A DNA stretch of 64,000 nucleotides from Prosthecobacter sp. (GCF_034366625.1 NZ_JAXMIH010000026.1:1-64000); one strand, 5' to 3'. Positions 49,093 through 58,363 are shown, counted from the first letter of the stretch. A program made the numbers and translations. Notes: generated from the sequence alone by a model not told the origin.

Positions 49093-50259
49093 ATGATCCT
49101 CGAGACCTTGCTTCGCTGGCTGATCTGCATGGTACAGCCATTTTATGGCTGGCGCGTGCCGGTAGCTTTGCTGCGCGGTTCCGCCCGGGGATCGGGGAAG
49201 CAAGTGACCTTGCTTGCCGCAGGGAGCAAACGATGGACGCAGTTCATCAAGCAGCATTTTTTTGCGGGAGAACCCGAGGTGGTGCGCATGGTGCGGGTGC
49301 CCGTGTGGTCCCTGCAGAAGCGGCTGAACGAATGGCAGTCTTCCGCCGATCTGACAGTCGTGGGCATTGACCGGGTTTCTGCCGGCCTGTTTCTCGAACG
49401 CGGCTGCCTCAGGGTGCCGTTTTGGATCACGTCATGGATGCAGGTTCCGGATGATTTGAAGGCGTTTGGACGCACTCACGGTCATGCGGCGGCTGATATG
49501 CAACGGGTACGGAACAACGATCTGGAGCACAGGCTGTCGCACGCGAATGAGGATCTGGATGAATTCTACGACAGGTTTTATGTCCCCTACATCAGTCATC
49601 GGCATGATGTGGGTGAATCGCTTGCCTCGCGCTGGATGATCCGGTTTCTTTTCAAACATGGGGGGCTGATGTGGGTCATCCGGGAAGATCAACGCCTGGC
49701 CGGTGGCATCACCATGGTGCAGGGAAAAAAATGTTCCATGGGACCGATCGGGCTGCGGGACGGACGGCTCGATTTGCTACGCCAAGGGGCGCTGGCTGCG
49801 ATCTATGTGCATTCGATCCAACATGCCCGACAAGCAGGCTGCACGAGGCTTTTCATGGGGGGAAGCAGGCCCTCGCTGCATGACGGAGTGCTGCACTACA
49901 AAAGCAAATGGGCAGGGGGTCTCTGTGCTCATGGTGGACACCTGTCGTCCAATTTTGTCATGCTGCTGCGCTGGAACCGGCTTGACGGTCCGGTGGCGGA
50001 GTTTCTGAGCCACACGTCCCTGATTCACCATGACCACGATGGCTACTCGGCCTTGTGGGTGTTTCCCAGCGATGTGCCGCTGACGGCGGACAACCTGCGC
50101 AAACACCATCGCGACCTCAACGCCGCCGGCCTGCGCCGCTTCCGCATCCTGCTGCCCGGTGATCCGCCGCCTGATTTCGAGTGCCCGCCTGAGGTGCGTT
50201 TGATCTCGCTTGAATCCATGGCCCATGGAGGGCCTGAAATGCTTCAGACCTTCGCATGA
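49093..50259 (+). CDS. FemAB/GNAT-fold acyltransferase-like protein, paralogue 1
   Basis: A 388-residue protein whose second half matches the GNAT_6/FemAB-like domain: DEFYDRFYVPYISHRH near residues 155-170, VHSIQHARQAGCTRLFMGGSRPSLHDGVLHYKSKWAGGL and FLSHTSLIHHDHDGYSALWVFPSDVPLTADNL. Such proteins transfer acyl or aminoacyl groups onto sugars or amines. The start is an ATG 36 bases after the dehydrogenase gene. Its stop overlaps the start of the next gene by 4 bases (ATGA). The paralogue downstream is about 60% identical by eye, so this is a tandem duplication. No assignment to a substrate is possible. Confidence 0.7.
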   Translation: MILETLLRWLICMVQPFYGWRVPVALLRGSARGSGKQVTLLAAGSKRWTQFIKQHFFAGEPEVVRMVRVPVWSLQKRLNEWQSSADLTVVGIDRVSAGLFLERGCLRVPFWITSWMQVPDDLKAFGRTHGHAAADMQRVRNNDLEHRLSHANEDLDEFYDRFYVPYISHRHDVGESLASRWMIRFLFKHGGLMWVIREDQRLAGGITMVQGKKCSMGPIGLRDGRLDLLRQGALAAIYVHSIQHARQAGCTRLFMGGSRPSLHDGVLHYKSKWAGGLCAHGGHLSSNFVMLLRWNRLDGPVAEFLSHTSLIHHDHDGYSALWVFPSDVPLTADNLRKHHRDLNAAGLRRFRILLPGDPPPDFECPPEVRLISLESMAHGGPEMLQTFA

Positions 50260-51494
50260 GCGCGCATTCTGGTGAAACGTCTCCCCCGTTTGTCGTCATG
50301 AGACTCAACACCCTGCTTCGATGGCTGATGTGTTTCGTTCAGCCGGTCCTGGGCTGGCGGGTGCCGGTGGTCTTGCTGCGCGGCAAGGCGCGCGTGTCAG
50401 GCCGGTCGGTGACGCTGCTGGCCGCCGGGCGCGAACGGTGGACCGAGTTCATCCGGGAGCGTTTCTTCGCGGAGGAACCTGAGATGGTTTGTGCGGCGAA
50501 GGTTCCCGTGTGGTTCCTGCAGAAACAACTAAAGCGGTGGCAGCCTTCCGCCGACTTGATGGTGGTTGGAGTCGCCCGGATTTCAGCCTGGCTGTTTCTT
50601 GGCAAAGATTACCTCGCATCACCCCCGATGGTCTCGATGTGGATGGACGTTCCGGACGATCTGGAGGCCTATGTGCGCCGGCATCGGAGCGCGGCTGGAG
50701 ACTGGCGGCGGACGCACCGGAAAAAGTATCAAAGCGTGATCTCCCGCGACGAGGCGGATTTCGATCTCTTCTACGATCAGTTTTACCGGCCCTACATCTG
50801 CGGGCGGCATGGTTCGACGGCGAAACTGTCCCCGAGGTGGCTGTTGCGCCTGGCGTTTAAGCGCGGCCAGATCCAATGGCTGCTTCTGAACGGCGAGCGT
50901 GTGGCCGGAGATTTGGTCGTGGTGACAGGGAAGACCTACACTCTGCGGGTGACGGGTTTGCTTGACGGTCGGCTGGACTTGCTGCGCCAGGGAGCCATGG
51001 CCGCTTTGTACGTGCATTCCATCGGCCATGCGAGGCAGTTCGGCTGCACGCAAATCGCCATGGGCGGTTCCCTTGCTTCGTTGCATGACGGGGTGTTTCG
51101 CTACAAGTGCAAGTGGTCCAGCGGCCTTCAGGACCATGACGGTTTTCTCTCGGCAAACCACGTCCGGCTCTTCAGTTGGAACCGGCTGGCTGGCCCGGTG
51201 GCGGAGTTTCTGAGCCACACCTCCCTCGTGCACCATGACCACGACGGCTACTCGGCCTTGTGGGCGTTTCCCAGCGATGTGCCGCTGACGGCGGACAACC
51301 TCAGGAGGGAGTATCGCGCCCTTCGGGCTAGCGGCCTGCGCCGCTTCCGCATCCTGCTGCCTGGTGATCCTCCGCCTGATTTCGACTGCCCACCTGAGGT
51401 TCGTTTGATCAACATCCAATCAGTCGCTCAAGCTGGTACCCAAGCCTTCAATGCCATGGAGTCAGATACCCCCGGCAAAGCCGGGGGTATCTGA
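50256..51494 (+). CDS. FemAB/GNAT-fold acyltransferase-like protein, paralogue 2, ending in a hairpin
   Basis: A 412-residue paralogue of the previous gene, sharing the same landmarks (DLFYDQFYRPYICGRHGS, VHSIGHARQFGCTQIAMGGSLASLHDGV, FLSHTSLVHHDHDGYSALW). It extends beyond the paralogue by about 20 residues; the last 11 (ESDTPGKAGGI) are encoded by a perfect hairpin repeat that also holds the stop codon. Long stretches of the two genes are identical in nucleotides in their 3' thirds, which implies recent duplication or gene conversion. It precedes the BKACE gene by 92 bases. Confidence 0.7.
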   Translation: MSAHSGETSPPFVVMRLNTLLRWLMCFVQPVLGWRVPVVLLRGKARVSGRSVTLLAAGRERWTEFIRERFFAEEPEMVCAAKVPVWFLQKQLKRWQPSADLMVVGVARISAWLFLGKDYLASPPMVSMWMDVPDDLEAYVRRHRSAAGDWRRTHRKKYQSVISRDEADFDLFYDQFYRPYICGRHGSTAKLSPRWLLRLAFKRGQIQWLLLNGERVAGDLVVVTGKTYTLRVTGLLDGRLDLLRQGAMAALYVHSIGHARQFGCTQIAMGGSLASLHDGVFRYKCKWSSGLQDHDGFLSANHVRLFSWNRLAGPVAEFLSHTSLVHHDHDGYSALWAFPSDVPLTADNLRREYRALRASGLRRFRILLPGDPPPDFDCPPEVRLINIQSVAQAGTQAFNAMESDTPGKAGGI

Positions 51495-53163: not shown

Positions 53164-54114
53164 TCAGGGCTTCGCGAACCGGATGGTTACGCCCTGCATT
53201 TGCGAGGTGACTTTTTCCCCGCGTTCTTTGCCAAGCACGCACATGGCGGTCGCCAGTGCGTCGCTGGTGGTGCAGTCGGGGGCGATGACGGAGCAGGCGA
53301 TGCGGGTGGTGAGAGCGAGACCGGTCTTGGGGGATAGAATGTGGGAGTAGCGGGTGCCTTCGATGTCGATGAATTGATACAGGTCGCCGGAAGTAGAGAC
53401 GCCGCAGTTTTTGAGGCGGACGGTTGCCATGGTCTCTTCGGCGTCGGGCGTAGGTTTGGTGAAGGTGCGGAGTTTGATGTCCCAGGCGTCTGCTCCGGGC
53501 GGGGGATCGCCGATGGCGATGTCGCCACCGGCCAAAACGAGGGCGCGGGTGAGGCCGTGTTCGCGCAGGATGCGGAGTCCTTCATCGGCGGCGTAACCTT
53601 TGGCGATGCCGCCGAGGTCGAGGAGCATGCCGGGCTTCGTGAGCGTGATGGTTTGCGCCTTGGCATCGATCTGCACGGCACGCCAATCGGTGGCGGCGAG
53701 GGCTTGGGCGAGGCGGTCGGTGGGCGGGAGTTTTTTGACGCGTTTGGTGCGCCGCCAGAGCTGGGAGAGATTGCCGCAGGTGGGATCGAAGGCACCGTCG
53801 GTGAGGCGAGCGAGATCGAGGGAGCGGGAGAGGAGCCCGAGGAGCGCGGGGCTGGCCTTGAAGGGCGTGTTGGGACCGGCGTTGCAGAGCTGCATGAGCT
53901 CGCTGTTGGGTTCATAGTCGGAGAAGACGGTGTTGAGGTGGGCGATGCGCTTGAAGGCGGCAGCGGCGGCGGTTTCGGCCTGCGTTTTGGATTCCGCATG
54001 CAGGGTGATGCGGAAGGTGGTGGCCATGAGCGGCGCGGAGAAGTCGTAGCGCTTCAGCTCTTGCGCAGTGAGTGGGCAAGCAAGGATGAGAACGATAAAA
54101 ACGAGCCGAAACAT
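53164..54114 (-). CDS. apbE: FAD:protein FMN transferase (ApbE family)
   Basis: A 316-residue ApbE protein that attaches FMN to threonine residues of target proteins such as NqrC, RnfG or flavin reductases. Landmarks are TDGAFDPTCGNLSQLW, DLGGIAKGYAADEGL, VLAGGDIAIGDPP, and YSHILSPKTGLALTTRIACSVIAPDCTTSDALATAMCVLG. The N-terminus (MFRLVFIVLILACPLTAQ) has a possible lipobox with Cys13 and fits a periplasmic lipoprotein. ATG 54114 is preferred to 54177. No NQR or RNF genes are in the window. Confidence 0.9.
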   Translation of the reverse strand: MFRLVFIVLILACPLTAQELKRYDFSAPLMATTFRITLHAESKTQAETAAAAAFKRIAHLNTVFSDYEPNSELMQLCNAGPNTPFKASPALLGLLSRSLDLARLTDGAFDPTCGNLSQLWRRTKRVKKLPPTDRLAQALAATDWRAVQIDAKAQTITLTKPGMLLDLGGIAKGYAADEGLRILREHGLTRALVLAGGDIAIGDPPPGADAWDIKLRTFTKPTPDAEETMATVRLKNCGVSTSGDLYQFIDIEGTRYSHILSPKTGLALTTRIACSVIAPDCTTSDALATAMCVLGKERGEKVTSQMQGVTIRFAKP

Positions 54115-54248
54115 GGAGGTGCCGGAAGTGCGAACTGCTGATTGAACGCTGACGAGACGCTGATTTGAATCAGGCATTAGCGTCTGATCAGCGTCTTGTC
54201 AGCGGTTTAGAAGATGAACCGCAGAACAACGGCAGGTCGAAACACGAT

Positions 54249-54653
54249 TCACCAAGCCGGTTCGGCGTGGAGCGCGGAGGCGAGATCAAGGGACGCGGTA
54301 GAAGCGGGAGGGCGAGCTGATTCCAGCGGAGCTGCGAAGTGTTGGCAGGCGCTGCGCACGGCGGGAATGGCCTCGATGTTTTGGCAGCGAACGAGAAGAA
54401 CGCGGCCTTCTGGCAGGCTGTGGAGGTAGATGCAGCCGCTATCGTGCTGCTGGATGATTTCGTGGCAGTCGCCATTGCCGGAACGGCGTCCGAGTTCGGA
54501 CGCGGCGGCGAGGGTGGCGTGAGCAAGAACGAGAATCGCAGTGGTAGGAGGCTCGGGTTCGCCTGCGCAGCCAAGCAAGCGGCCGGAATCGTCGGTGAGG
54601 GCGGCTTGAAGAACTCCAGGCCGGGCTGCTAACGATGACAGGTCAAAGGTCAA
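54249..54653 (-). CDS. Roadblock/LC7-like small protein associated with an MglA GTPase
   Basis: A 134-residue protein with the layout of a roadblock/LC7 domain (LAARPGVLQAALTDDSGRLLGC, then IYLHSLPEGRVLLVRCQ). The start is a TTG at 54653, which falls inside a GTCAAGAGG-type repeat; a CTG at 54641 is the alternative. It lies 26 bases after the MglA-type GTPase gene and probably in the same operon. In Myxococcus, MglB (roadblock) is the GTPase-activating partner of MglA. The reading is fold-level and moderate. Confidence 0.6.
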   Translation of the reverse strand: MTFDLSSLAARPGVLQAALTDDSGRLLGCAGEPEPPTTAILVLAHATLAAASELGRRSGNGDCHEIIQQHDSGCIYLHSLPEGRVLLVRCQNIEAIPAVRSACQHFAAPLESARPPASTASLDLASALHAEPAW

Positions 54654-54675
54654 GAGGTGGTCAAGGCGTCAAGAT
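54638..54675. repeat. GTCAAGAGG-type repeat, copy 3
   Basis: Units AGGTCAAAGGTCAAGAGG, GGTCAAGG and GTCAAGATGG lie at the start of the small roadblock gene, and supply its TTG start codon. Confidence 0.7.
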
Positions 54676-54679
54676 GGGA

Positions 54680-55321
54680 TCAAGCGGCCAACGCGTGAGT
54701 GGGGACTACGTCCGGAGCGTCCTCGGACGCGGTGCGGAGGCGGAACTGGTGAAGCACGGCCTGGGAGATGGCGTTGAGCGTGGCGAGCACGTTACGGCCG
54801 GTGCGGGCGTCGGATTCGAAGCTGAGGAAGGGGACGGGGCGGTTGTTGAAGAGGTATTCGAGGTATTCGACCGGAGCAGCGTTCGGCAGGTCGCGCTTGT
54901 TGTATTGCAGGACGATGGGGAGGCGGTCGAGCGAGCTGCCGTTCATGCGCAGGTTGGCTTCGAGGCTTTGGAGGGACTGCAAGTTGTCGCGCTGGCGGTC
55001 CATTTGCGAGTCGGCGACGAAGACGACGCCATCAGCCTGCCGCAGCACGAGCTGGAGCGTGGCGTTGTAAGTGACCTGACCTGGGACCGTGTAGAGATGG
55101 AAGGTGGTCTTGTAACCGGGCAAGGCGTCGGCCTCGACGGCGAGGAAATCGAAGAACAGCGTGCGATCCTGCGCGGTGGAGAGCGAGACGAGGTCACTGC
55201 AGCCCGTGGGGTCGAGCTTGGCGTGGACTTGCTGGAGATTGGAGGTCTTGCCGCTGAGCGGCGTGCCACAATAGACGATCTTGAAGCTGATGGTGTGGTC
55301 GTCGTGATTGATGCTGGGCAT
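54680..55321 (-). CDS. mglA: MglA-type Ras-like GTPase
   Basis: A 213-residue GTPase of the MglA group. Walker A is GTPLSGKT at residues 19-26, switch II holds TVPGQV (PGQ at 80-82), then GVVFVADSQ, and the guanine specificity motif NKRD is at 141-144. This combination, with TVPGQ in place of DTAGQ, is the MglA signature. In Myxococcus, MglA sets cell polarity and motility; in other bacteria the role is less clear. ATG 55321 gives a normal length. Neighbours are a small roadblock gene and the SPF-repeat protein. Confidence 0.9.
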   Translation of the reverse strand: MPSINHDDHTISFKIVYCGTPLSGKTSNLQQVHAKLDPTGCSDLVSLSTAQDRTLFFDFLAVEADALPGYKTTFHLYTVPGQVTYNATLQLVLRQADGVVFVADSQMDRQRDNLQSLQSLEANLRMNGSSLDRLPIVLQYNKRDLPNAAPVEYLEYLFNNRPVPFLSFESDARTGRNVLATLNAISQAVLHQFRLRTASEDAPDVVPTHALAA

Positions 55322-55326
55322 GGCAG

Positions 55327-55354
55327 AGAAAATGACGAATTTTAGAATGACGCC
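55327..55354. repeat. AATGACGAATG-type repeat, partial copy 4
   Basis: AAAATGACGAATTTTAGAATGACGCC in the 54-base gap between the SPF-repeat gene and the MglA gene. Confidence 0.5.
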
Positions 55355-55375
55355 GCCCCAAACGGAAAGCCGATT

Positions 55376-58363
55376 TTAGCCGAGCAGGCGGGCGAGTTCG
55401 CGCGCGATGAGGGTGATCTTGTCCCGCAGACCGTTGGAGGGTTCAACATCGTGCAGCACGGCGACGGTGGTGCTGCCGGGGAAGCAGAAGGTCAAAAGGC
55501 GGCCGCCAGCATTGAGCGTGAAGGTTTCTGCTCCTTCGATGCCGATGAGCGGGGCAAGGCCGCGCAACTGACGGGCGATGTCGGGAGCCTGGCGCTGGAA
55601 CTCGGAAGCGTCAGGCTTCGAGGTGTCGGCATGGCTGAGGACGTGCGAGCCATGCAGGCAGACGCAAGCGCTGAGACCGTGCTGGGTGGCAAGCAACTCG
55701 ACGACACGCGGCGCGGCGAGGTTTTCCTCGGTGCCGAGGAGCGCTCGGAGCAGAAGCTGATCGGTCTGCGTGTCCACCGGCGAGAGGCCGAGGAAGGAGT
55801 GCTTCACGGCAGCCATTTTAGCCGGAGCCGCCGCAGGCGGGTTGGGCATGGGCGCGGGTCTGGATTCAGGTCTGGGCTGCGGTGCTGGCTCGGCAAACAA
55901 CGGCGCACTGGCAGGCTGCGTGCTGAACAAGCCGCGTGACGCGGGTGCTTTGACCGGTTCAGACAAAGAGGGGATTTCATCCAAGGCTGGTGCGAAGGAG
56001 GGCGTCGGCTGGAAGGGTGCGAAAGCAGGCGCGGCAAAAGGATTGGGTGCCTGTTTGATCTCGGGCGCTGGCGAGAACGCGACGGCCGGCTGGGGTGCGG
56101 GAGACTGACCGAGCAACTGGGCGCTGTTGAAGCCCGATTCAGCCGGTGCTTTGGATGCCAGCGATCCAGTTGGCGATGCCGAGGCGGCAAACGGATCGAA
56201 CGGCTTCGTGGTCGGTGCCAGGGCTGAAGGCGGTTGGGGAGCCGGCTGGCTGGCAAAGGGCGAGGGCTGGTTTCCGAAAGGTTGAAAAAACGCTCCCGCG
56301 AGCGGCTGTGACGGAGGGGAAGGAGTCGGCTCCGGTGCGGCAGGAGGGAACAAGGACTGCGATACTGGAGCCACCTGGGGCCGTGCGGGTGGTGCTGGTT
56401 CGGCTGCTACCGGTGGATTGAAGGTGAACGGCGATGCTGGGGCGGGTTGCTGAGCGGAACCAAAGGCCGAGGTGGGTGCCGGGGTTGCTGGCGGCTGGCT
56501 TTGCGCGAAGGGATTCAACGCCGCACCGAATTTCGGCGTGAACGATGAAGTCGGGGACGCCTGTGCGGGAGGCTCTGCCGCCGGGGTGGCAAAGGCAGAG
56601 AGAGGATTCGGAGGGGGCTGCTGGGGGGCGAAGGCTGGCATCGCTGACGCGGCGAAGGAAGCTGGGGGCGATGTTTCCACTCGATTGACCTGTCCGGCGG
56701 GGGGGCCGGGTTGAATGGTGAAAGCGTTGTTTGCCGGCGCGGACTGAGGTGCAGCGCCAAAGGGCGAAGGCGAAGATGCAGCGGGGGCCGAGGCCATGCT
56801 GGTGAGCGCATGGAAGACTTCGTTCTGTGGCAGCCTGACTTGGAAATCGCGCTTCGCGGTGGCGAGCGTGTTGCGGAAGCCGAGGTCGGAAACGCCGTCG
56901 ATGAGCGCTCCGAGTTCCACGATGACGTTGCCGGAGGAAATCTGCTCATTCAGGGTGCTGGCCGACACGCTGGTGGTGATCCATGCCGGGACCATGACCG
57001 GATTGAAACCGAGTTCTTCGACGCTGTAACCGTTCAACACCGCCGCGAATCCCAGCTTGGCCATGCCAGCGGCCGATGAGGTGCTGCCAAACATGGGCGC
57101 GGGTGCCGCCGAGGGGGCAAACGGTTGCGCAGAAGGTGCCTGTGCAGGCGCGGCTTGGGGCTCGGCCTCCTTCATCGCAGCCGCAAAGGGCGATCCAAAC
57201 GGCATCGCAGGAACTGCCGCAGGCATGGCGGCTGGGGTGGAGGCCCTTTCCTGTGATTGCGGGGTGAACAGACTGCTGATGGATGCCGGCGGTGCCGCCG
57301 GAGCAGGATTGGTGGCCGCAGGTGTAAACGGCGATGGAATGGCCGACGGAATTGCGGCGAACGGCGAAGCAGAGGCAGGTGAAGCAGGGGCTGCGGCAGA
57401 GAAGGGGGATGCAGCCTGCTGCGGCATGCTGAAGGGTGATCCGCCCGCGTTCGGGCCCAGAGAAAAGGGCGAGCCAGCCGGTTGTGGCGCTGCGTCAGCC
57501 TGCATGGTGAAAGGACTGGGAGGCGGAGTGTCCTGCTTGATCGCGAAGGGACTGGCCGCCAGTGTTTCTGATGCTGGTTTGATGGAGAACGGCGAAGGTG
57601 CCGGGGCAGGTTCAGGTGCCGCAAAGCCTGGTGATGCAGCGGCGAAGGGACTCATCGGGAACGCCTGCGCGTGCGTTGCGCCAGGTTCCGCCTGGGGCGC
57701 TATCTGGAAAGGCGATGCCGCAGGTGCGGGGGGAGATGCAGGCTGGGCAAATGAAAAAGGCGACGGTGAAGATGGCACAGGAGCAGCAGGTTCAGCCGCT
57801 CCTTGTCCTTCCCGTGCCTGCGCAATCAGTCCTGGAAGCTTGGCTGCGGGCAGCGGCACGAGACGTGGATCCTGGGGAGAGATGGGCACCTGAAACAGCG
57901 CCGGACAAACGCGATACAACTCAAACACCGGCAGCGCCGCCTGGCCGCTGCGCAGGGCATTCTCCAGAAGCATCGGTGGCAGGGACAGGGGTTGTTCCAG
58001 AGGCAGGGCTCCTGCGCGCACGACTTCGGGAGGAAGCTGGTTGATCACATCCCCCACGGTGAGCGGTGCATTCGTGGGCGTTGCTCCAGCGATGCTGAAA
58101 GGCGACATGCCCATCGCCGAATTGATCGGCGGTGCGGCAATCGGCTCGTTGCCTGCCGTTTTGAAAAGTGGATTGCCGCCGATTTGAAACGGGGATGCCC
58201 CGGTTGGAGGCTGCAGGGTGGAGGGTGCTTGCATGGATGAGTGACTGGGAGGCAGCGTGCCAGCCATGGCGGGATGAGCCCTCGCGAAGTGTTGCGGTGC
58301 GCTTTGCCCCGGTTCGTCAGAACCGGCACCACGCTGGAACAAACTTCGGAACGAAAAACTCAT
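55376..58363 (-). CDS. 995-residue disordered SPF-repeat protein with conserved N- and C-terminal domains
   Basis: A giant Pro/Ala-rich protein. Residues about 103-185 form one globular block (VGDVINQLPPEVVRAG...AKLPGLIAQ); a second, similar block is at about 448-522 (VEELGFNPVMVPAWITTSVSAS...LPQNEVFHALTS). Around them are roughly 17 SPF motifs plus two NPF motifs (at about 617 and 774), spaced by disordered A, P, Q and S. The C-terminal 140 residues (about 855-995) look like a roadblock/LC7 domain. No signal peptide. It is the upstream gene of the MglA-roadblock group, with a 5' untranslated region of about 50 bases after a TATAAT box. Function unknown; likely a scaffold. Confidence 0.75.
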   Translation of the reverse strand: MSFSFRSLFQRGAGSDEPGQSAPQHFARAHPAMAGTLPPSHSSMQAPSTLQPPTGASPFQIGGNPLFKTAGNEPIAAPPINSAMGMSPFSIAGATPTNAPLTVGDVINQLPPEVVRAGALPLEQPLSLPPMLLENALRSGQAALPVFELYRVCPALFQVPISPQDPRLVPLPAAKLPGLIAQAREGQGAAEPAAPVPSSPSPFSFAQPASPPAPAASPFQIAPQAEPGATHAQAFPMSPFAAASPGFAAPEPAPAPSPFSIKPASETLAASPFAIKQDTPPPSPFTMQADAAPQPAGSPFSLGPNAGGSPFSMPQQAASPFSAAAPASPASASPFAAIPSAIPSPFTPAATNPAPAAPPASISSLFTPQSQERASTPAAMPAAVPAMPFGSPFAAAMKEAEPQAAPAQAPSAQPFAPSAAPAPMFGSTSSAAGMAKLGFAAVLNGYSVEELGFNPVMVPAWITTSVSASTLNEQISSGNVIVELGALIDGVSDLGFRNTLATAKRDFQVRLPQNEVFHALTSMASAPAASSPSPFGAAPQSAPANNAFTIQPGPPAGQVNRVETSPPASFAASAMPAFAPQQPPPNPLSAFATPAAEPPAQASPTSSFTPKFGAALNPFAQSQPPATPAPTSAFGSAQQPAPASPFTFNPPVAAEPAPPARPQVAPVSQSLFPPAAPEPTPSPPSQPLAGAFFQPFGNQPSPFASQPAPQPPSALAPTTKPFDPFAASASPTGSLASKAPAESGFNSAQLLGQSPAPQPAVAFSPAPEIKQAPNPFAAPAFAPFQPTPSFAPALDEIPSLSEPVKAPASRGLFSTQPASAPLFAEPAPQPRPESRPAPMPNPPAAAPAKMAAVKHSFLGLSPVDTQTDQLLLRALLGTEENLAAPRVVELLATQHGLSACVCLHGSHVLSHADTSKPDASEFQRQAPDIARQLRGLAPLIGIEGAETFTLNAGGRLLTFCFPGSTTVAVLHDVEPSNGLRDKITLIARELARLLG

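What the first reader, a model, noticed from the sequence alone, without database searches (positions are those of the whole stretch)
54249..58363. MglA GTPase between a roadblock-like protein and a 995-residue SPF/NPF-repeat scaffold
Seen: MglA motifs are intact; a small roadblock-like gene follows; the large gene has two related globular blocks, about 17 SPF and two NPF motifs in a disordered Pro/Ala background, and a roadblock-like C-terminus. Known: MglA and roadblock MglB control polarity in Myxococcus. Inference: a polarity or membrane-organising switch that uses multivalent short motifs, functionally reminiscent of FG or NPF-type scaffolds in eukaryotes. This gene combination is not a named system to my knowledge.
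Basis: partly seen in the sequence, partly recalled or inferred. Interest (0 to 1): 0.78.

Follow-up and report, generated by a model that had tools for sequence, protein, structure and literature searches.

The report
MglA polarity switch with roadblock scaffold
Prosthecobacter and many other Verrucomicrobiota carry a bacterial Ras-like polarity switch (MglA) whose constant genetic partner is a previously undescribed, mostly disordered protein that ends in the same kind of regulator domain as MglB, and neighbouring genes in relatives suggest that it steers type IV pili.

Summary
The MglA is intact (R53, T78, Q82, NKRD at Myxococcus numbering). The small gene is an MglB-type roadblock protein. 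[quoted passage not shown] best PDB matches Myxococcus and Thermus MglB). The large gene sits next to mglA in 38 of 38 testable loci of Prosthecobacter and its order, and near mglA in 12 of 29 more distant Verrucomicrobiota loci. In four class-level relatives the operon is TPR – PilB – scaffold – MglA – MglB; nine loci continue into ExbB (mostly with ExbD). Akkermansiaceae relatives keep a short SPF/roadblock protein beside a GTPase with lost GTP-binding motifs. In some genomes no small MglB is detectable, so the scaffold's roadblock is the constant partner. Most likely it is an MglA/MglB-type module for placing or activating type IV pili, with MglC/RomR-like functions fused into one scaffold. 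The linkage is shown; pilus control is inferred from relatives; the role of SPF motifs is unknown. New variant of a known kind.

The parts
55376..58363 (-). Scaffold gene, 995 aa: N-terminal motif, two copies of a small domain, disordered Pro/Ala linkers with SPF/NPF motifs, C-terminal roadblock domain
   Evidence: ORF; adjacent to mglA in 38 of 38 testable loci of genus and order
58334..58363 (-). Conserved N-terminal motif MSFSFRSLFQ (residues 1-10)
   Evidence: Mean column identity 0.73 over residues 1-10 against 0.3-0.4 in the following 40 residues; MSFSFRxLF/MGFSFRSMF-like start in most scaffolds of the order
57800..58072 (-). Block domain, copy N (residues 98-188)
   Evidence: Profile hits in nearly all loci with the region; AlphaFold pLDDT 89.6, pTM 0.79; no convincing PDB match
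56780..57061 (-). Block domain, copy M (residues 435-528), homologous to copy N
   Evidence: Separate N and M profiles align, hhalign E 2.7e-7 over 69 columns; the only two copies in the genome
56036..58195 (-). Disordered region holding 17 SPF and 2 NPF motifs (residues 57-776, densest at 201-393)
   Evidence: Count, codon diversity and shuffles; 7-20 SPF in most full-length Prosthecobacter-genus scaffolds
55379..55762 (-). C-terminal roadblock/LC7 domain (about residues 868-995)
   Evidence: AlphaFold order H-H-E-E-H-E-E-E-H, pLDDT 86; Foldseek best matches Myxococcus MglB E 8e-5; VIA-align Z 13.1 to Thermus MglB, rmsd 2.5 over 113 residues
54680..55321 (-). mglA, Ras-like GTPase with intact motifs
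   Evidence: phmmer E 5.2e-52 to Myxococcus MglA; motif table
54249..54653 (-). Small roadblock gene, MglB-type
   Evidence: Pfam Robl_LC7 23.3 bits, cut-off 23; same-position genes in relatives align to class-level MglB, hhalign 99.8%, of which one matches NCBIfam MglB NF052242 at E 2.4e-16

Best explanation
This is a Verrucomicrobiota version of the MglA/MglB polarity switch. MglA cycles between GTP and GDP forms. Its GTPase activity and position are set by two roadblock proteins: the small MglB and the roadblock domain at the end of the large scaffold. The scaffold tethers the switch to a cell site through its N-terminal motif and its two block domains, and gathers further partners along its disordered arm, where the SPF motifs probably act as repeated weak binding sites. 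The output is most likely the local activation of the type IV pilus extension ATPase PilB, and possibly of an ExbB/ExbD (TolQ/TolR-type) motor. Shown here: domain anatomy, intact GTPase motifs, conserved linkage, and PilB/TPR and ExbB/ExbD neighbours in relatives. Inferred: that scaffold, MglB and MglA bind one another, that the scaffold sets position, and that pili are the output. Unknown: what the SPF motifs and the block domains bind.
For: Intact MglA with R53/T78/Q82. Roadblock fold of the scaffold C-terminus with MglB as best match, and a weak direct Pfam Robl_LC7 hit in a class-level scaffold (17.9 bits, 1023-aa frame). Profile homology between the scaffold C-domain and the small protein (E 2.5e-7). 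Scaffold next to mglA in 38/38 testable loci of genus and order and within about 2.5 kb in 12/29 wider loci. TPR-PilB-scaffold-MglA-MglB in L172, L173, L174, L176; PilB after mglB in L178 and L180. DUF4388 (PATAN) genes, two of them with a receiver domain, beside divergently transcribed scaffolds in L188, L189, L204. MglA-GTP acts through the TPR protein SgmX to localise PilB in Myxococcus (PMC7519303), and the PATAN regulator PixE is reported to bind PilB1 (PMC7690835). The genome encodes PilT-family ATPases over the curated cut-off and PilB/GspE-type ATPases.
Against: In Prosthecobacter itself no pilus gene lies beside the module, and the TPR gene of relatives has no detected homologue in this genome (an empty answer that proves little). 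The link to pili rests on other classes. ExbB/ExbD are as frequent neighbours as PilB. Neither polar localisation nor twitching was examined. In the Akkermansiaceae the GTPase has lost its GTP-binding motifs while the scaffold remains, so the scaffold may also have a job without GTP.
Confidence: 0.55

Rival explanations
1. The module regulates an ExbB/ExbD (TolQ/TolR-type) envelope motor rather than pili, for example coupling polarity to Tol-like envelope work or to a gliding motor like AglRQS.
For: ExbB, mostly with ExbD, directly follows mglB in nine loci (L042, L055, L057, L059, L061, L086, L100, L171, L173), precedes the short scaffold in five Akkermansiaceae loci, and follows the scaffold in L195, which has no detected mglA. 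MglA stimulates the Agl/Glt gliding complexes in Myxococcus.
Against: Absent beside the module in most Prosthecobacter loci. ExbB/ExbD genes are common and may simply be TonB or Tol-Pal genes; their own function was not resolved. L173 has both PilB and ExbB/ExbD, so the two are not exclusive.
Confidence: 0.2
2. The MglA/MglB pair is an ordinary switch and the scaffold is only a co-transcribed neighbour with an independent task; the SPF motifs are a by-product of its Pro/Ala/Ser composition.
For: SPF arrays are absent outside the order, and in two loci of other families a scaffold is found without a detected GTPase nearby (L195, L196).
Against: The scaffold carries a roadblock domain, the known MglA partner fold. 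Linkage holds across the order and, in part, the phylum, with changed orientation. SPF counts far exceed shuffles, use varied codons, and persist in the shortened Akkermansiaceae proteins (4-9 SPF/NPF against 0.2-0.5 expected).
Confidence: 0.12
3. Within the same module, the scaffold roadblock domain has replaced MglB as the GAP, and the small gene is a remnant or an adaptor of MglC type. (This rival differs from the best explanation only in the division of labour.)
For: No small roadblock was found at the locus in a dozen or so loci with sequence downstream of mglA, and none genome-wide by Pfam or by the window protein in G005 (Brevifollis gellanilyticus), G024, G023 and G115, all of which keep the scaffold. 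The small protein of the window barely passes the Pfam cut-off.
Against: Diverged small roadblock genes can be missed: Pfam also misses those in G017 and G033 that the profile finds. Most loci keep the small gene.
Confidence: 0.3

Closest known systems
Myxococcus xanthus MglA/MglB polarity module
   Same: MglA with the same catalytic residues; adjacent MglB-type roadblock gene; roadblock fold closest to MglB
   Different: Constant extra partner: a long disordered scaffold with its own roadblock domain; gene order scaffold-mglA-mglB
RomR/MglC/MglB complex (PMC10329633)
   Same: A second roadblock protein besides MglB, and a polarity determinant to which it is coupled
   Different: Here roadblock domain and disordered arm are one protein; no receiver domain was found in the scaffold; homology to RomR or MglC in particular was not shown
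MglA-SgmX-PilB control of type IV pili (PMC7519303)
   Same: TPR gene and PilB gene in one operon with mglA in class-level relatives
   Different: The TPR protein also carries an MshEN domain and was not shown to be an SgmX homologue; no such genes at the Prosthecobacter locus
PATAN-linked MglA groups 1 and 5 (PMC4316618)
   Same: Group 5 MglA was reported in Verrucomicrobia, and PATAN genes near some group 1/5 mglA genes
   Different: That survey reports widely varying neighbourhoods for group 5 and mentions no such scaffold in the passages read
Actinobacterial conservons (CvnA-D)
   Same: Conserved operon with a roadblock protein and an MglA-type GTPase
   Different: No histidine kinase or CvnC here; different partner protein

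Membership tests
MglA GTPase family | P-loop GxxxxGK[ST], NKxD, T78 in place of Asp, R53 and Q82 | tested here: met
   GTPLSGKT, NKRD, TVPGQ, R53; E 5e-52 to Myxococcus MglA
MglB / roadblock GAP (small gene) | Roadblock/LC7 domain next to mglA | tested here: met
   Robl_LC7 23.3 bits, cut-off 23; profile homology to class-level MglB
MglB / roadblock GAP (small gene) | Stimulates MglA GTP hydrolysis as a homodimer | not testable with these tools
   Needs biochemistry
Roadblock/LC7 superfamily (scaffold C-terminus) | Fold alpha-beta-beta-alpha-beta-beta-beta-alpha | tested here: met
   AlphaFold element order and confidence; Foldseek and VIA-align to MglB, Ragulator and Asgard roadblocks
Roadblock/LC7 superfamily (scaffold C-terminus) | Match to the Pfam Robl_LC7 model over its cut-off (an aid to recognition, not a defining feature of the fold) | tested here: not met
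   No hit in the window protein; one of 39 members at E 0.03; class-level scaffold 17.9 bits, cut-off 23. Filed as a roadblock domain on fold and on profile homology to the small protein
RomR | N-terminal response-regulator receiver domain | tested here: not met
   No Pfam family in the scaffold at E up to 1
SgmX-PilB type pilus control | TPR protein and PilB tied to mglA | tested here: inconclusive
   Met in four class-level operons; not at the window locus; no TPR homologue detected in this genome
NPF/EH-type or FG-type motif scaffolds | Multivalent short motif array in a disordered region | tested here: met
   17 SPF and 2 NPF, the SPF far above shuffles
NPF/EH-type or FG-type motif scaffolds | A partner domain that binds the motif | not tested
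   No partner searched for; none known

The most novel reading that the evidence does not exclude
The scaffold is a single-chain polarity landmark: its SPF array is a multivalent sticker system that builds a polar assembly, its block domains bind a so far unknown polar cue, and its roadblock domain recruits and regulates MglA. In the Akkermansiaceae the GTPase has become a pseudo-GTPase that serves only as a structural subunit.
Probability: 0.25. Interest if true: 0.82.

Novelty: new variant of a known kind. Interest (0 to 1): 0.62.

Why it matters
MglA switches are known in detail in Myxococcus and to a lesser degree in a few other bacteria. Here one phylum, which includes the stalk-forming Prosthecobacter, carries an MglA switch with a constant partner that is not in Pfam or NCBIfam, contains a small domain without a PDB match, and fuses a roadblock domain to a long disordered arm. 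It gives a concrete test of whether the GTPase-roadblock polarity principle is general, how it can be rewired, and whether short-motif multivalency is used in bacterial polarity. The pseudo-GTPase lineage is a natural experiment on which parts of the module matter without GTP.

Tried and rejected
apbE (53164-54177) as part of the module: rejected, since it follows the small gene only in a subset of Prosthecobacter loci. DNA-level tandem duplication as the source of the SPF array: rejected, 12 different spellings and no tandem array there. Pfam and NCBIfam for the scaffold and its block domains: nothing convincing. Sequence search of PDB with the C-domain profile: only sub-threshold hits, one of them a Robl_LC7 protein at E 0.28. 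PDB fold search for the block domain: no match better than E 1.2, best VIA-align Z 2.3; this does not prove a new fold. Further copies of the block domain in the genome: none. Promoter/terminator scan: no more sites than in shuffles. Paper searches for MglA with TolQ and roadblock, and for Prosthecobacter cell polarity: no paper.

Full report
What is there. Three genes lie head to tail on the minus strand: a 995-aa protein (55376-58363), a 213-aa GTPase (54680-55321) and a 134-aa protein (54249-54653), with gaps of 54 and 26 bases between them. The window lies in a Verrucomicrobiota genome: named relatives with near-identical loci are Prosthecobacter MAGs, with Brevifollis gellanilyticus, Phragmitibacter and Verrucomicrobium further away.

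The GTPase. It aligns to Myxococcus MglA over nearly its whole length at E 5e-52. P-loop, R53, T78, Q82 and NKRD are all intact at Myxococcus numbering; 88 of 93 GTPases collected have intact P-loop and NKxD motifs. It is an ordinary, probably active MglA.

The small protein. It passes the Pfam roadblock cut-off by a hair. In a class-level relative the gene in the same place matches roadblock strongly (42 bits) and matches NCBIfam's MglB model at E 2.4e-16, below that model's strict cut-off. Genes of the window's clade align to these at 99.8% probability (both sets were gathered by one iterated profile, so they are not fully independent). It is an MglB-type protein.

The large protein. Conservation along it shows four islands: the first ten residues (MSFSFRSLFQ), about 98-188, about 435-528, and about 868-995. 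The two middle islands are copies of one domain: profiles built separately from each align at E 2.7e-7. AlphaFold gives the first copy a confident compact fold (pLDDT 89.6, pTM 0.79) for which neither Foldseek nor VIA-align finds a match in the PDB. The C-terminal island folds confidently (pLDDT 86) with the element order of a roadblock domain. Its best structural matches are MglB of Myxococcus (Foldseek E 8e-5) and, among others, Thermus MglB (Z 13.1, rmsd 2.5 over 113 residues). Its profile aligns with that of the small proteins (E 2.5e-7), and one class-level scaffold is itself touched by the Pfam roadblock model, below cut-off.

The SPF motifs. There are 17 SPF and 2 NPF in the window protein. 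Shuffling its core gives about one SPF, never more than 4 in 300 shuffles, against 16 observed in that core; the two NPF are within chance. They are spelled by 12 different nonamers, so they are not a recent DNA repeat. Most full-length scaffolds of the genus hold 7 to 20. In the Akkermansiaceae relatives the scaffold shrinks to roughly 250-380 residues but still keeps 4-9 SPF/NPF. Scaffolds of other classes have none or one. The array is therefore an invention, or an elaboration, of this order.

Linkage. In the genus and its order the scaffold lies directly upstream of mglA in all 38 loci where the upstream sequence is available. Among 29 further MglA loci fetched from the phylum survey, 12 have a recognisable scaffold nearby: 7 directly upstream on the same strand, 5 on the opposite strand. 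MglA was found in 36 of 338 sampled Verrucomicrobiota genomes. The small mglB follows mglA in most loci, but was detected neither at the locus nor genome-wide in G005, G024, G023 and G115. There the scaffold's domain is the only roadblock domain detected. Because Pfam misses some diverged copies, this absence is a lead rather than a proof.

Neighbours that hint at function. In L172, L173, L174 and L176 the operon begins with a TPR protein (in L174 shown to carry an MshEN domain too), then a PilB-type ATPase (TIGR02538 630 and 674 bits in L174 and L176, just under its cut-off of 675.65), then scaffold, mglA and mglB. In L178 and L180 PilB follows mglB. In L188, L189 and L204 a large protein with a DUF4388 (PATAN) domain, in two of them with a Pfam receiver domain too, lies beside the divergent scaffold. 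In nine loci ExbB, mostly with ExbD, follows mglB; L173 has PilB and ExbB/ExbD in one run. In Myxococcus, MglA-GTP binds the TPR protein SgmX, which localises PilB, and MglA also enters the Agl/Glt gliding complexes (PMC7519303); the PATAN regulator PixE is reported to bind PilB1 (PMC7690835). The genome of the window encodes PilT-family ATPases over the curated cut-off and several PilB/GspE-type ATPases, so a pilus system is plausible.

A degenerate lineage. In five Akkermansiaceae loci (L190, L192, L194, L202, L203) the GTPase next to the short scaffold has lost NKxD (HRAD or worse), and in the three that align there the Ser/Thr of the P-loop is Leu. ExbB and ExbD lie upstream. The small-genome members of that family, taken to be Akkermansia, lack detectable MglA and scaffold in the survey.

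Mechanism. The simplest reading is an MglA/MglB-type switch in which the role of a second roadblock protein and a localisation scaffold are fused. In Myxococcus RomR, MglC and MglB form a complex that sets the rear pole (PMC10329633); the scaffold resembles MglC plus a disordered arm in layout, but it has no receiver domain and homology to RomR or MglC specifically was not shown. Pilus control is the best-supported output, on gene neighbourhood alone. What the block domains and SPF motifs bind is open.

Novelty. MglA in Verrucomicrobia and PATAN genes near some mglA genes are known (PMC4316618). The scaffold, its domains, its linkage across the phylum and the degenerate-GTPase lineage were not found in the papers searched, a library that holds only openly licensed papers.

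Noticed in passing
L190:7884-8429, L192:2719-3309, L194:7014-7577, L202:5893-6444, L203:5910-6434: MglA-like proteins of Akkermansiaceae relatives with lost NKxD and altered P-loop, next to a short SPF/roadblock protein: probable pseudo-GTPases.
   Followed up: partly
L173 (G306:C89:17000-32000): One run of genes TPR, PilB, 1023-aa scaffold, MglA, MglB, ExbB, ExbD: the most complete version of the module.
   Followed up: partly
L061:2141-2683: Divergent MglA with AVDSD in place of TVPGQ (no Q82) and no aligned R53, but intact P-loop and NKRD.
   Followed up: no
L195 and L196: Scaffold with roadblock C-terminus but no MglA detected nearby; in L195 it is followed directly by ExbB and ExbD.
   Followed up: no
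window 49093-50259 and 50256-51494: Two neighbouring, clearly similar genes of about 390-410 aa on the plus strand, apparently a tandem duplication.
   Followed up: no
G000:C10:20739-23615 (L223:6636-12096): Two tandem PilB/GspE-type ATPase genes with GspF-like and pseudopilin-like genes downstream, in the window's genome.
   Followed up: partly
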